A stretch of 64,000 nucleotides of DNA from Myxococcales bacterium (GTDB taxonomy: Bacteria > Myxococcota_A > Polyangia > Polyangiales > Houyiibacteriaceae): contig JAOTYL010000007.1 in the NCBI GenBank assembly GCA_029861865.1, positions 62,001-126,000 of the forward strand, read 5' to 3'. Made by a program: the position numbers and the translations under genes. Position 1 is the stretch's first letter; the number at the start of each line of letters is the position of its first letter. Of this stretch, positions 12,530 through 19,696 are shown piece after piece. The notes under the pieces were generated by a model, which saw nothing but the letters and a program-made list of their open reading frames with translations, was not told the DNA's origin and made no database searches.

Positions 12530-14814
12530 TCGCGGACGATGGCGTCGAGCGCACCGGCATGCGCATGGGCAAGCTCTTCCACGGCAACGTCGCACACACC
12601 CTCGATCGCCAGGGTGTCAGCCGCGACTTCACCAAGCGTCTCGAACGGCACCCCGAGGCGCTCGCACAGCAAGAGCGCCTCGTCGACGTTGCCCGACGGG
12701 AGGCTCACGACGATCCGCGAAGGCTCCTCGCTGAAGAGCAGGGCATGAGCGGGCGCGTCTCCGCCGGCAGGAAGTGAGATGCGCGCTCCGTGACCGTTCG
12801 CGATGCAGGCCTCAGCCACACACATCGCAATGCCGCCGTCACTGATATCATGGGCGCTCCTAACAAGTTGCCGTTGTGCGAGCTCGAGCATGGCCTGCTG
12901 CAATGCCGCCTCGGCATCGAGATCGATGCCAACCGGCGCGCCTGTAATCGACCCCATCGTCTGCACGAGCCACTCCGACCCTCCCAAGACGCCACGCGAA
13001 GGCCGTCCGAGGTGCGCGATGACATCGCCTTCGTTGAGGAATCCCAAGCCCAATCGGTGAGCTGGGTCCTCGAGCTGACCGACGACCGCTACAGTTGGTG
13101 TCGGAAGGATCGATTTCCCGTCAGTCTCGTTGTAGAAGCTCACGTTTCCCGATACGACGGGAGCCCCGAGTGCTGTGCAGGCCGTCGCCAATCCATCGAT
13201 CGCTCGCGCAAAGCGCCACATCTGCTCAGGCACTTCGGGATTTCCGAAGTTCAGGCAGTCGGTAAGGCCTAGTGGCTTAGCTCCTACGCACACGACATTG
13301 CGCGTGCACTCCGCGACCGCCATCGCCGCGCCGAGAAATGGATCGAGCTCCACGTGTCGAGCGTTGCAGTCGGCGGAGATCGCGAGAAACTTCTCCTGAG
13401 TGCCATCGGTGTCCTGGCAGAAGACGCGAATGACGGCTGCGTCCCCGTCTCCCGGGCGAACGACTGTGCCGTCTCCGACGATGTGGTCGTACTGCCTCCA
13501 AATCCATGACCTGCTTCCGATGTTGGGGGAGCCGATCAGACGCAGCATCTCGGCTCCGAGGTTACCCGGCGCATCGTCGGTCAGGGTGACCAGGGTTGCG
13601 GCATCGGGCCTCGCTTCCTGCGGGCGGTCGTACTTAGGCGCACAGTCGGTCAACAGGTCGACAGGTAGATCGACGACGACGACGGGGTCAGGCTCGGTCG
13701 GAGCGTCGTCGAATGGATCGTGACCAGGGGTCGCTTTGCAGACGAAGCGACCGGACGACGTAACGCGGCCGACGATCGAGACGTCGAGGTCCCACTTGGC
13801 GCAGATGTCGAAGACCTCGTGCTCGCGGCCGCGCTTTGCCACCATCAGCATGCGTTCCTGGGACTCGCTTAGGAGCATTTCGTAAGGACTGAGCGCGCGG
13901 GTCCGCCGCGGGATCGCGTCGAGGTCGAGCTCGATGCCGTTGCCTGCGCGTGCGGCCATCTCGACCGACGAAGAAGTCAGCCCGGCGGCGCCCATGTCTT
14001 GTACGCCGGACAAACAGCCGGTCGCGAAGATCTCGAGGCAGGCCTCGAGGAGAAGCTTCTCCATGAAGGGATCGCCGACTTGCACCGTAGGAAGTTTGCT
14101 GTCGGTTTCCTCGCCGAACTCGGCACTTGCCATCGTCGCGCCGTGAATGCCGTCGCGTCCGGTCTTCGCGCCAACATAGATGATCGGATTCCCGATACCT
14201 TCGGCCCTGCCAAAGAAGAGCTCGTCCGTCTTGGCAATCCCGACCGTGAAGGCGTTGACCAAAATGTTGCCGTCGTAGCTGGCATCGAACTGCACTTCGC
14301 CACCCACGGTGGGCACGCCGATGCAGTTGCCGTAGCCACCAATCCCAGCGACGACTCCTTTCAGCAAGTGCGGCGTCTTTGGATGGTCAGGCCGCCCAAA
14401 CCGGAGCGAGTTGAGTGACGCCACCGGGCGGGCGCCCATGGTGAAGACGTCCCGGAGGATTCCGCCGACACCAGTCGCAGCGCCTTGATAGGGCTCGATG
14501 TACGAGGGGTGGTTGTGCGACTCCATCTTGAACACCGCGCAGAATCCGTCGCCGATATCGACCGCACCGGCATTCTCGCCAGGTCCCTGCACGACCTGAG
14601 GACCTTCGGTGGGCAATCGGGAGAGGTGCACACGAGACGACTTGTAAGAACAGTGTTCGGACCACATTACGCTGATCACTCCGAGCTCGGCATAGCTCGG
14701 CTTGCGTGAAAGAGTGCTGAGAACCCGCTCCCACTCGTCGTCGGCGAGGCCGAACTTACGCGCGAGCTCCGCCGAAGCGTCCGGTTCGCCGGGGAAGTTC
14801 TCGGGCGTCGTCAT
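12526..14814 (-). CDS. purL: Phosphoribosylformylglycinamidine synthase, large subunit
   Basis: Fourth step of purine synthesis: converts FGAR to FGAM using ATP and ammonia delivered by PurQ. At 762 residues it is the small (three-component) PurL type. The SEHCSYKSS segment and [21 protein letters not shown] stretch (conserved ATP/metal site) lie in the first 120 residues. Later the duplicated AIRS-like domain shows [13 protein letters not shown]. The ATG at 14814 overlaps the purQ stop by 4 bases. This type normally needs PurS as well; purS is not adjacent. Confidence 0.96.
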
Positions 14815-15506
14815 TGTGCCCCTAAGTGGCGTCGCAGCGATTGAAAAAGACTCAGCCCATCGTCGTTCCCGAGAATGGCTTCACTGGCCCGTTCTGGGTG
14901 CGGCATCATTCCAAGCACGTTCTTGTCGCGGTTGTAGACGCCCGCAATGTCATCGACCGCCCCATTGGGATTGGCCGGGCTGCCTTCGGGCGCATCGCCA
15001 TGGCGGGTGCAGTAACGAAAGGCGACCTGGTTGTTGGCGTGGAGCTGCCGCAGTGTTTCCGGGCTGCATTGATACCGCCCATCGGCGTGGGCGACCGGAA
15101 GCTGCAGTACCTGTCCCTGCCCCATGTCGGTGAAAGGACCGTCGTTTTCGACGCGGACGAAGATGTCTCGGCACTCGAACCGTAGATGAGCGTTGCGGGT
15201 CAGGGCACCGGGCAGGAGGCCCATCTCGGTGAGCACTTGAAAGCCGTTGCAGATCCCGAGGATTGGGCCTCCGCGTTCGGCAAACCCTCGAACCGCGCTG
15301 ACGATCGGGCTAAAGCGTGCGATCGCGCCGGCTCGGAGGTAGTCGCCGTACGAGAAACCGCCAGGGATCACCACAGCGTCGGCACCCCCGAGAGAGATCT
15401 CTTTGTGGAAGGCATACCAGGCGTCGGCACCGAGAACATCCCTCACGGCGTGAAGGGCATCCCAGTCCGCATTGGAACCCGGAAATTGTACGACAGCGAC
15501 TCTCAT
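14811..15506 (-). CDS. purQ: Phosphoribosylformylglycinamidine synthase, glutaminase subunit
   Basis: Class I glutamine amidotransferase that supplies ammonia to PurL. The 231-residue length is usual for PurQ. It starts [14 protein letters not shown]. The glycine-rich [10 protein letters not shown] is followed by the nucleophile cysteine in [10 protein letters not shown], and MMPHPER holds the catalytic histidine and glutamate. It overlaps purL by 4 bases, so the two subunits are probably made together. Confidence 0.96.
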
Positions 15507-15578: not shown

Positions 15579-16205
15579 CTATTGAACGAGCTCGAAATAC
15601 CCGTGCGAGATCTCGGGCGCGAGCCCCTCGGCAGGGGTCAACCGAAACACGATCGTGCCCCGACAGCTGGCTGCGTCGACCTGCCCATACGCACGGCTGT
15701 CCTGGCCCATGTAGCCGCGATAGTCGCCCAAGAGGTAGACCTTGCCGGGATCGACGGTCGTTTTGCGGACTAGGTGCTGGCGACTCTGACCGAAGAAGAT
15801 GAGGTGTTTGTCGCTGCCGCTGCGCTCGTTGCCCCATATGACCGGGCGAGTCAGACCGTTGTCGTCGTTGTAGAACTCGGTGGTGCCGCGCTCCTCGAAT
15901 TGTAGCGACGAGCCGTCGAGGCGGAGGACGTCGCCAAAAGACTCGATGACGCTACCTTCGGTTGCTGCGACCCGGCCGACCACCCAGCCCTCCTCGGTCG
16001 GGTGCTTGCAGACGGCGATCGCGTCAAGCACTGGCTCGCCACGCTTATTGATCAGGACCCGCTCCCCTCGCACGAGAGTGGGGGCCATTCCGTTGTGTCC
16101 CATCGTAGCCATGTCGAACAGAAGCACCTTCAGCAGAAGCAACAGGACGATGACCGCCGCGCCGATCCACGATAAACATCCGAGTCCGCTTCGCATCCAC
16201 CCCAC
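15579..16205 (-). CDS. Signal peptidase I (S26) homologue lacking the Ser/Lys dyad
   Basis: 208-residue protein with one N-terminal membrane segment (residues 10-30) and then an S26-like periplasmic domain. The family's SGSMxPTL box reads HNGMAPTL here (residues 37-44), so the nucleophile serine is Gly39. The box that normally holds the general-base lysine before RVIGLPGD reads VVGRVAATEGS, putting Gly77 at that place. The final box is well kept: LLGDYRGYMGQDSRAYG. It is therefore probably not an active leader peptidase, although the fold seems intact. The start is GTG at 16205; an ATG three codons later is possible. It lies between thiE/tenI and purQ in one transcriptional direction. Confidence 0.8.
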   Translation of the reverse strand: MGWMRSGLGCLSWIGAAVIVLLLLLKVLLFDMATMGHNGMAPTLVRGERVLINKRGEPVLDAIAVCKHPTEEGWVVGRVAATEGSVIESFGDVLRLDGSSLQFEERGTTEFYNDDNGLTRPVIWGNERSGSDKHLIFFGQSRQHLVRKTTVDPGKVYLLGDYRGYMGQDSRAYGQVDAASCRGTIVFRLTPAEGLAPEISHGYFELVQ

Positions 16206-16213
16206 GAATTCGC

Positions 16214-16852
16214 CTATTCAACGTTTGGATGGTTTTTGTCAAGTCTCCGGAGGAATCGGTCGAGGACGATCCTCGGATCCTCCGCATCATAGACCGCGCG
16301 TCGAATGCCGATTCCATGCGCGCCGGCTTCGAGCAACCGCTCCATATCGTCCGGCCCGACGCCACCCAGCGCGAACACCGGGATCTCGAGGCCGGCGATC
16401 CCTTGCTGAAACCCTTCCACTCCGATCGCGGGGTTCTTGCCGGGGACTTCGAACACAGGGCTGAGGAACGCATAGGTGGCGCCAGCGTCTTGCGCCACGA
16501 CGAGACCAGCGCGATCGTGCCGCGATACACCGATGATCTCGAGGCGCGGCCACCGCTGTCGCACGCGCAAGATAGGCAACCCGGCCTCCGGGAGGTGAAT
16601 CCCATCGGCGCCGACGATCTGCGCCACGTCGGGCCGTTGGCTCACGAGTAAGAGGCTACCCGCCGACGCCGTGATCGCCCGAAGCTCGTGTCCCCAGTCG
16701 ATCAGCTTTCGGTCCGAGACGTGTTTGGCGCGGAGCTGAATACCGATCTGGTGACCATCATGGCCGTCGAGCGCTCGTCGAAGCGGAGCGATCGGCCCGG
16801 CCCCGTGCTCTGGGTTTGTGATGATCCAGATCCGCGGAAGCTCCCTCGGCAT
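16214..16852 (-). CDS. Thiamine-phosphate synthase ThiE / thiazole tautomerase TenI family
   Basis: TIM-barrel protein of 212 residues. Visible family features are IGIQLRAK, GADGIHL near residue 85, IIGVSRHD near 108, FLSPVFEVPGK near 130 and the phosphate-binding ALGGVGPDD near 162. ThiE joins HMP-PP with thiazole phosphate; TenI isomerises the thiazole product of ThiG. The ThiE-typical INDR is VSQR here, and HLGQ is HLPE, which leans towards TenI. The position directly after thiS-thiG fits either role. I leave the symbol blank for that reason. Confidence 0.75.
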   Translation of the reverse strand: MPRELPRIWIITNPEHGAGPIAPLRRALDGHDGHQIGIQLRAKHVSDRKLIDWGHELRAITASAGSLLLVSQRPDVAQIVGADGIHLPEAGLPILRVRQRWPRLEIIGVSRHDRAGLVVAQDAGATYAFLSPVFEVPGKNPAIGVEGFQQGIAGLEIPVFALGGVGPDDMERLLEAGAHGIGIRRAVYDAEDPRIVLDRFLRRLDKNHPNVE

Positions 16853-17958: not shown

Positions 17959-18810
17959 GTGAAGAAGATCTTCGAGGGCGACAATCTTTCCCTGCTGCAG
18001 AAGCTTCCGAGGGCGTTCGCTCGGCTTGTCTACATCGATCCCCCTTTCAACACGGGGCAGAGGCAGGCGCGGGAGCGCATGCGCGTGAAAGCCGCCGACC
18101 ACGGAAAGCGCGTAGGCTTCGGGGGCCGTCGATACGAGGTAGAGCATGTCGAGAGCCCCACGTTCGAGGACGATTTCGACGACTACATTGCGTTTCTCAT
18201 CGAGCGTATCGAGGCGTCACTGCCCTGCCTGACACCGGATGGCTCGCTCTTCGTGCACCTCGACTACCGCGAGGCACACTACGCCAAGGTCGCGCTCGAT
18301 CGACTCTTGGGCCGGGATCGCTTTCGAAACGAGATCATCTGGGCCTACGATTTCGGAGGACGCCCGAAACGATGGTGGCCAGCCAAGCACGACACCATCC
18401 TTTGGTACGTCCTCGACCCGAAGCGGTACGTGTTCCAATTCGACGAAATGGATCGCATTCCGTACATGGCGCCCGGCCTCGTCGGAAAAGAGAAAGCAGC
18501 TCGAGGCAAGACACCGACCGACGTCTGGTGGCACACGATCGTCCCCACCGGCGGCAAGGAGAAGACCGGCTACCCGACCCAGAAGCCCCTCGGCGTGCTC
18601 GAGCGAATCATCAAAGTGCACAGCGAGCGGGGCGACACCATCCTCGATTTCTTTGCGGGGAGCGGGACGGCAGGTGAAGCGGCCGCGCGTCACGACCGGG
18701 GGTTCGTGCTGATCGATGAGAACCCGGAAGCCATCGCAATCATGTCGAAGAGGCTCGCCCGTTGGGGTCCCGAGGTCGTCGCCTCTTCGAAGCAGGCTAG
18801 CGCGGAATGA
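17959..18810 (+). CDS. Orphan beta-class DNA methyltransferase (N4-C or N6-A)
   Basis: 283-residue S-adenosylmethionine-dependent DNA methylase. The catalytic DPPFNT (motif IV) is at residues 27-32, and the SAM-binding DFFAGSGTAGEAA (motif I) comes late, near residue 230. This order (IV before I) marks the beta class, as in type III and some type II modification enzymes. No restriction endonuclease is adjacent, so it is an orphan. Recognition sequence unknown. GTG start at 17959. Its 3' end overlaps the convergent glutaminyl cyclase gene by 14 bases. Confidence 0.9.
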   Translation: MKKIFEGDNLSLLQKLPRAFARLVYIDPPFNTGQRQARERMRVKAADHGKRVGFGGRRYEVEHVESPTFEDDFDDYIAFLIERIEASLPCLTPDGSLFVHLDYREAHYAKVALDRLLGRDRFRNEIIWAYDFGGRPKRWWPAKHDTILWYVLDPKRYVFQFDEMDRIPYMAPGLVGKEKAARGKTPTDVWWHTIVPTGGKEKTGYPTQKPLGVLERIIKVHSERGDTILDFFAGSGTAGEAAARHDRGFVLIDENPEAIAIMSKRLARWGPEVVASSKQASAE

Positions 18811-19696
18811 ATTCCACCTCGAACACCGCAGGCCAGAGCTTTCCGGTCAACAAGAAGGTCTGCGTATCCGGCTTGTAGGCGATTCCATTGAGCACGTCGG
18901 CCCGCGCTGCCTCGTCACGGGAGAGCAGACCCCTGGCGTCGATCGAGGCGGTCACGTCGCCGTTGGTCAGATCGATGCGCACGATCTCTTGTCGCCGCCA
19001 GATATTCGCGTAGACGTGTGGACCCACACATTCGAGCTCATTGAGCATACGGACTGGGATGCCGTTTTTGTGCACCATCACCCGACGAAGAACTTGCATC
19101 GTTTCGGGATCGCGGATCGCGAGAGTCGACGACCCGTCGCTCATGATCAACGAGGTGCCGTCGAAACAGAGTCCCCACCCTTCGCCGTCGTACCGAAAGG
19201 TCCCTCGTTTTTCGAGCGTATCGAGGTCGGAGACGATCGCCTGCCCGGAACGCCAGGTGAGCGCGATCAGTCTGTCGTCGACGCGCGCCAGCCCTTCACC
19301 GAAAAGCCTTTGGTCGAGCTTTCGCTCCGCCAGCACTTTCCCATCGCCGAGCCTTACTCTTCGAAGCGAGGACTTTCCGTATCCGCCGGTGCTTTCATAG
19401 AGGAACCCGTCGTGCCAAATCAGCCCTTGGGTGAAGGCGTTGCGGTCGTGGGGATAGCGTCTTAGCACCCGGGTGCGGAGCGCTTCGATTTCGATCGTCG
19501 CCGCGTCAGCCTGCGAATCCGAAGGCTCGATCTCGACTGGTGCCACCGTTTCTTCGGATGGTTCTCGGAACTTCGGCACGAGGAAAACCGCAACGGCGAC
19601 AGCCCCGCCAACGAGCATGCCGGCCCACATTACGCGAGCGGATCGCTGCTCGGCGCGCTTCACCGCTTCGGTATGCCGTCGTTGGGCCCGGGCCAT
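18797..19696 (-). CDS. Glutaminyl-peptide cyclotransferase (plant/bacterial type)
   Basis: 299 residues. A single N-terminal membrane anchor (about residues 22-40) and an acidic linker are followed by a beta-propeller-like domain of the glutamine cyclotransferase family. Supporting segments: YPHDRNAFTQGLIW, GEGWGLCFDG with MSDGS next to it, LNELECVG, and DVLNGIAYKP near the C-terminus. The enzyme would convert N-terminal glutamine to pyroglutamate on exported proteins. The anchor predicts periplasmic location. It is divergent from alr. Confidence 0.88.
   Translation of the reverse strand: MARAQRRHTEAVKRAEQRSARVMWAGMLVGGAVAVAVFLVPKFREPSEETVAPVEIEPSDSQADAATIEIEALRTRVLRRYPHDRNAFTQGLIWHDGFLYESTGGYGKSSLRRVRLGDGKVLAERKLDQRLFGEGLARVDDRLIALTWRSGQAIVSDLDTLEKRGTFRYDGEGWGLCFDGTSLIMSDGSSTLAIRDPETMQVLRRVMVHKNGIPVRMLNELECVGPHVYANIWRRQEIVRIDLTNGDVTASIDARGLLSRDEAARADVLNGIAYKPDTQTFLLTGKLWPAVFEVEFIPR

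What the first reader, a model, noticed from the sequence alone, without database searches (positions are those of the whole stretch)
15579..16205. Signal-peptidase homologue with both catalytic residues replaced
The serine of SGSMxPTL is glycine (HNGMAPTL) and the lysine before RVIGLPGD is glycine (VVGRV). The third box GDYRGYMGQDSRAYG and the membrane anchor are intact. Such a protein could bind preproteins or partners without cutting. It sits inside a thiamine/purine gene run, which is unexpected.
Basis: partly seen in the sequence, partly recalled or inferred. Interest (0 to 1): 0.6.

Follow-up and report, generated by a model that had tools for sequence, protein, structure and literature searches.

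The report
Dead signal peptidase kept by myxobacteria
A membrane protein shaped like the enzyme that trims exported proteins has lost its cutting residues, yet it is kept under selection across one order of myxobacteria with two added, never-changing cysteines, so it most likely holds or guides exported proteins instead of cutting them.

Summary
The 208-aa ORF at 15579-16205 (-) is a type I signal peptidase homologue (PF10502; TIGR02227 above cut-off) with Gly at the Ser90 position and Gly at the Lys145 position (E. coli numbering). The Lys-supporting Ser278 position is also Gly. It is not a sequencing error: 17 same-genus orthologues agree (Gly; Gly/Ala). The genome has a separate intact LepB.

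It belongs to a so far undescribed, order-wide family (80 sequences; Polyangiales plus one related order). The lysine is Gly/Ala in 80/80. The serine is kept in Polyangiaceae but mostly Gly/Ala elsewhere, so the lysine went first. Two cysteines (C66, C181) are invariant in 80/80 and absent from 12 other S26 proteins; a disulfide is likely but unmeasured. dN/dS is about 0.16 against the nearest relatives. The model (pLDDT 92) matches E. coli SPase (Z 20) and the inactive streptococcal SipA (Z 15.6, 1.8 A).

Best reading: a membrane-anchored periplasmic pseudo-signal-peptidase that binds exported chains or an envelope partner without cutting. The thi/pur setting is probably incidental, since neighbours change across the order. 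The kind is known (SipA, SpsA); this lineage, its cysteine pair and its Gram-negative spread are new.

The parts
15579..16205 (-). Signal-peptidase-I-like protein without catalytic residues (called SPL here), 208 aa, GTG start
16119..16202 (-). N-terminal helix (residues 2-29), predicted membrane anchor
   Evidence: secondary structure of the model; hydrophobic sequence
16089..16091 (-). Codon of Gly39, position of the catalytic Ser (E. coli Ser90)
   Evidence: sequence; alignments
16008..16010 (-). Codon of Cys66, invariant in 80/80 family members, absent in 12 other S26 proteins
15975..15977 (-). Codon of Gly77, position of the catalytic Lys (E. coli Lys145)
   Evidence: sequence; alignments
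15693..15701 (-). Codons of Asp169-Ser170-Arg171 (box E DSR), retained
15663..15665 (-). Codon of Cys181, invariant in 80/80 family members
16214..16852 (-). thiE (TMP synthase), 8 bp upstream
   Evidence: Pfam PF02581
16866..17672 (-). thiG
   Evidence: Pfam PF05690
17673..17873 (-). thiS-like 66-aa ORF ending in GG, start of the gene run
   Evidence: identification from sequence and position
14811..15506 (-). purQ, downstream
   Evidence: Pfam PF13507
12526..14814 (-). purL, downstream
   Evidence: Pfam PF00586/PF02769

Best explanation
SPL is a catalytically dead type I signal peptidase homologue, anchored in the inner membrane by one N-terminal helix with its beta-domain in the periplasm. 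The nucleophile, the general base and the residue that positions the base are all replaced (shown), so it should not cleave (inferred). It keeps the SPase fold and hydrophobic cleft positions (shown by model and alignment). It most likely uses that cleft to hold extended segments of exported or membrane proteins, or an envelope partner, at the membrane surface as a chaperone or assembly factor (inferred). A disulfide between C66 and C181, made in the periplasm, probably braces the domain (inferred). At the base of the family the lysine was lost and the cysteines appeared; the serine was lost later, at least twice (inferred from the distribution on the tree). Processing of preproteins is left to the separate intact LepB.
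For: Lys145 position Gly/Ala in 80/80; Ser90 position Gly/Ala in 49/80; Ser278 position Ser in only 3 of the 79 Polyangiales members plus the outgroup L153. No Lys or His column reaches 85% conservation, so no obvious relocated base. Invariant C66/C181, P42, P69, D169, S170; near-invariant R78, D161, R171. dN/dS 0.16 against the two nearest relatives, lower than thiE next door at 0.23-0.27. Model pLDDT 92, pTM 0.86; Z 20.4 to E. coli SPase 1t7d and Z 15.6, rmsd 1.8 A over 128 residues, to inactive SipA 4n31. Cleft positions I86, L95, I101, I144 stay hydrophobic. Family clade support 99/92. Intact LepB in the same genome.
Against: No binding or activity data. The Cys-Cys distance could not be measured (coordinates are not returned). 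Polyangiaceae keep Ser in 27/28, which suggests that position still matters there. In SipA the tested cleft mutation did not affect function (PMC4049620), so a retained cleft is not proof of peptide binding. No constant gene partner was found.
Confidence: 0.62

Rival explanations
1. SPL is a regulator of LepB: it competes for, or shields, a subset of preproteins, or pairs with LepB, and so slows or directs signal-peptide removal.
For: Same fold and anchor, intact LepB elsewhere in the genome, cleft hydrophobicity retained. This is a special case of the binding model.
Against: lepB is on another contig and is not linked; no sequence sign of a LepB interface was tested.
Confidence: 0.18
2. SPL is still an enzyme with a changed mechanism, for example a Cys nucleophile, or a Ser with a relocated base (His at the Ser278 position in 12 of 28 Polyangiaceae).
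For: C66 invariant; Ser kept in 27/28 Polyangiaceae; His two residues before DSR in 12 of 28 of them.
Against: In the window's protein and most of its clade both Ser and any His there are gone (Gly39, Gly167); in Polyangiaceae the other members have Pro, Tyr or Thr there; C66 aligns with a hydrophobic position of LepB-type proteins and always occurs with C181, which fits a disulfide better.
Confidence: 0.08
3. SPL serves thiamine or purine metabolism, for example as a membrane dock for ThiE/ThiG or a thiamine uptake part.
For: 8 bp behind thiE in the window, thiE-SPL order in all 18 genus genomes that have the gene and in four GTDB families.
Against: The domain is predicted periplasmic while ThiE/ThiG are cytosolic. 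In Polyangiaceae and f7 the gene is kept without thi genes nearby, and in several f1/f3/f8/f9 genomes it is not next to thiE. No TPP riboswitch in the window.
Confidence: 0.07
4. A decaying pseudogene of a lepB duplicate.
For: Loss of all three catalytic-site residues.
Against: Intact frames in relatives, dN/dS 0.16-0.32, 80/80 conserved Cys pair and box E.
Confidence: 0.01

Closest known systems
Streptococcus pyogenes SipA (PDB 4n31, 4k8w; PMC4049620)
   Same: SPase-I fold with anchor; catalytic Ser and Lys replaced (Asp and Gly there, Gly and Gly here); cleft retained; non-enzymatic role proposed. Z 15.6, rmsd 1.8 A over 128 residues.
   Different: SipA sits in a sortase/pilin cluster of Gram-positives; SPL sits with thi/pur, HK or FHA genes in Gram-negative Myxococcota and carries an invariant Cys pair. 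By profile SPL is nearer to active SpsB and E. faecalis SPase (E 1e-16) than to SipA (6e-14), consistent with separate loss of the dyad but not proof of it.
Staphylococcus aureus SpsA (inactive paralogue of SpsB; PMC12445088)
   Same: Inactive SPase paralogue lacking the two catalytic residues, in a genome that also has an active one.
   Different: SPL spans an order and has the Cys pair. The SpsA sequence was not compared here.
E. coli LepB / SPase I (PDB 1t7d, 1b12)
   Same: Fold (Z 20), arrangement of the conserved boxes, DSR motif, membrane anchor.
   Different: No Ser90, Lys145 or Ser278; small cap domain; Cys pair at what should be the Phe133 and Leu292 positions (E. coli numbering from memory).

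Membership tests
Type I signal peptidase (MEROPS S26A, PF10502, TIGR02227) | Sequence profile above curated cut-off | tested here: met
   PF10502 53.7 bits, cut-off 22.9; TIGR02227 59.3 bits, cut-off 47
Type I signal peptidase (MEROPS S26A, PF10502, TIGR02227) | SPase fold with N-terminal membrane anchor | tested here: met
   Model pLDDT 92, helix 2-29; Z 20.4 to 1t7d
Type I signal peptidase (MEROPS S26A, PF10502, TIGR02227) | Catalytic Ser (E. coli Ser90) | tested here: not met
   Gly39 in the window and all 17 same-genus relatives
Type I signal peptidase (MEROPS S26A, PF10502, TIGR02227) | Catalytic Lys (E. coli Lys145; His in ER/archaeal types) | tested here: not met
   Gly77; Gly or Ala in 80/80
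Type I signal peptidase (MEROPS S26A, PF10502, TIGR02227) | Ser two residues before box E DSR (E. coli Ser278) | tested here: not met
   Gly167 in the window; Ser in 9 of 12 comparison S26 proteins
Type I signal peptidase (MEROPS S26A, PF10502, TIGR02227) | Signal-peptide cleavage | not testable with these tools
   needs a biochemical assay
SipA-type inactive SPase of pilus loci | SPase-I fold with both dyad residues replaced | tested here: met
   PMC4049620
SipA-type inactive SPase of pilus loci | Encoded in a sortase/pilin cluster | tested here: not met
   Neighbours thiS-thiG-thiE and purQ-purL; no sortase or pilin among the conserved neighbours examined
SipA-type inactive SPase of pilus loci | Needed for pilus polymerisation | not testable with these tools
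   needs a knock-out
SpsA-type inactive paralogue | Inactive S26 paralogue together with an active-looking one in the same genome | tested here: met
   Intact LepB at G000:C12:50627-51220

The most novel reading that the evidence does not exclude
An order-wide pseudo-signal-peptidase family, braced by its own disulfide, forms a previously unknown periplasmic holdase or sorting factor of Polyangiales. In many lineages it works with the secreted YbjN/CesT-like protein encoded directly behind it (F38), giving a two-part export-chaperone system; the window's genus lacks F38.
Probability: 0.15. Interest if true: 0.7.

Novelty: new variant of a known kind. Interest (0 to 1): 0.42.

Why it matters
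Inactive signal peptidases are documented in a few Gram-positives (SipA, SpsA) and how they act is unresolved. Here is a Gram-negative family, old enough to span an order, that shows the likely order of loss (lysine first, serine later) and a fixed structural novelty (two cysteines). It offers many natural variants for asking what an SPase fold does once it cannot cut. It also matters for annotation: these proteins can pass the TIGR02227 'signal peptidase I' cut-off and be mis-named as active enzymes.

Tried and rejected
The idea that F38 is the obligate partner was rejected for this organism: none of the 19 same-genus genomes has it, and two family-f5 genomes (G036, G050) have F38 without SPL. 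Thiamine function was rejected as the family-wide role because the neighbourhood changes. No TPP riboswitch or other Rfam match in the window, and no sigma-70-like promoter match in the gene run, so nothing about regulation was learned. A relocated Lys/His base was looked for and not found. The one same-genus genome without SPL (G004) also gave no purQ match and only a distant thiE, so the missing gene there cannot be told from a missing contig. Literature searches found no report of this family. An earlier alignment mis-read strands and was replaced.

Full report
What is there. The finding's coordinates hold one open frame on the minus strand, 15579-16205, 208 aa with a GTG start that aligns with the first Met of the same-genus relatives. 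It is a type I signal peptidase homologue by Pfam PF10502 (E 3.2e-14) and passes the NCBIfam 'signal peptidase I' cut-off (TIGR02227, 59.3 vs 47 bits). Residue 39, in the place of the catalytic serine, is Gly (GGA) and residue 77, in the place of the catalytic lysine, is Gly (GGC), read directly from the sequence. Profile alignments against solved SPases put these residues in the Ser and Lys columns without any shift. The residue two before the box E DSR motif (E. coli Ser278, which supports the lysine; from general knowledge of the E. coli structure) is also Gly.

Not an error and not decay. Of 19 genomes in the genus 18 have the gene, with 60-100% identity, all with HNGMAPT and with Gly or Ala at the lysine position. 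The exception, G004, also gave no purQ match. dN/dS is 0.16 against the two nearest relatives and 0.22-0.32 against further ones, below or similar to the neighbouring thiE. A second S26 gene in the genome, at C12:50627-51220, has GPSMEPT and IVKRVIG and is an intact LepB.

A family. A profile of 30 members (A1) finds relatives across the order (125 of 144 genomes match at 1e-12, LepB matches included). In a phylum sample the strong matches lie in this order and in one genome of another order of the class. Named records place them in Myxococcota: Sandaracinaceae, Polyangiaceae and SG8_38-type MAGs. Across 80 aligned members the lysine position is Gly (66) or Ala (14), never Lys or His. The serine position is Gly 36, Ser 31, Ala 13, with Ser concentrated in f12 (taken to be Polyangiaceae; 27 of 28), the outgroup L153 and three others (L032, L035, L114). 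Box E Asp-Ser and the Pro of box B are invariant. Two cysteines, C66 and C181, are invariant in all 80 and absent in the 12 other S26 proteins compared. A maximum-likelihood tree puts the 68 sampled members in one clade (99/92) with two large subclades, f12 plus f7 and the rest. The reading is that lysine loss and the cysteine pair lie at the base, shared with L153, and that serine loss came later, at least once in f7 and once in the other subclade. L153 is drawn outside the 68-row clade, beside LepB-type rows in the midpoint-rooted drawing, so its exact place is open.

Structure. AlphaFold2 gives pLDDT 92 and pTM 0.86 with a single N-terminal helix (2-29) and a beta-domain. It matches E. coli SPase at Z 20.4 and the inactive S. 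pyogenes SipA at Z 15.6, rmsd 1.8 A over 128 residues. Positions that line the E. coli cleft (I86, L95, I101, I144 equivalents) remain hydrophobic. The oxyanion-side Ser88 position is His in 41 of 80. Coordinates are not returned by the tool, so the distance between C66 and C181 was not measured; the disulfide is an inference from invariance, periplasmic location and co-occurrence.

Setting. In the window the order is thiS-thiG-thiE-SPL-purQ-purL, with 8 bp between thiE and SPL. SPL follows thiE in families f1, f3, f9 and f10, but not in every genome of these, and purQ/purL follow directly in the genus and in one other genome (L043), with purQ a little further on in another (L039/L060). In f12 and f7 no thi gene was found nearby; instead there is an upstream histidine kinase or trypsin-like protein and a downstream FHA protein (f12) or an unknown secreted-looking protein F15 (f7). 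In most f1 (outside the genus), f3, f8 and some f9 genomes the next gene downstream is F38, a secreted-looking protein with a YbjN/CesT-like domain and two invariant cysteines of its own. F38 is absent from the window's genus, so it is not an obligate partner. The thiamine link is therefore most likely co-transcription, not shared function.

How it most likely works. Shown: fold (by prediction), loss of the catalytic residues, conservation, purifying selection, a separate intact LepB. Inferred: non-catalytic binding of exported chains or an envelope partner at the membrane surface, with a disulfide brace. SipA is the experimental precedent for an SPase-like protein that acts without cleavage (PMC4049620); there, changing the dyad-position Asp or occluding the cleft had no effect on pilus assembly, which is a warning that the cleft may not be the working surface here either. 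SpsA of S. aureus is a second inactive paralogue (PMC12445088).

Verdict. As a kind it is known (inactive signal peptidases); as a lineage it is a new variant with an invariant cysteine pair, and no description of it was found in the held library. Interest is moderate.

Noticed in passing
L157 (G172) and L158 (G294); L150 (G137): Further S26 homologues in Myxococcota without the dyad (GMFPSL / FGRV; GMFPGL / VGRA; AGMCPTL / IRRV) and without the Cys pair, suggesting inactive signal peptidases arose more than once in the phylum.
   Followed up: partly
L053:6612-7172, L067:6572-7111, L111:3925-4503(-) and others: F38: secreted-looking YbjN/CesT-like protein with two invariant cysteines encoded directly downstream of SPL in many Polyangiales, absent from the window's genus.
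   Followed up: partly
window 17959-18810 (+): Solitary DNA methyltransferase-like gene, divergent from thiS and kept at about 78-87% identity in most same-genus loci; a candidate orphan, epigenetic methylase.
   Followed up: no
window 18797-19696 (-): Glutamine cyclotransferase (PF05096) with an N-terminal hydrophobic stretch, next to the methyltransferase, conserved in the genus.
   Followed up: no
L058:1820-2179, also L043 and L062: A small lipoprotein-like gene (LAPFQC) sits between thiG and thiE in other genera, so envelope genes are repeatedly mixed into this thiamine run.
   Followed up: no
L118-L148 (f12, Polyangiaceae): In f12 the SPL homologue keeps Ser but has His (12 of 28) or Pro (12 of 28) at the Ser278 position; a Ser with a relocated His in that subset is worth an assay.
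   Followed up: partly
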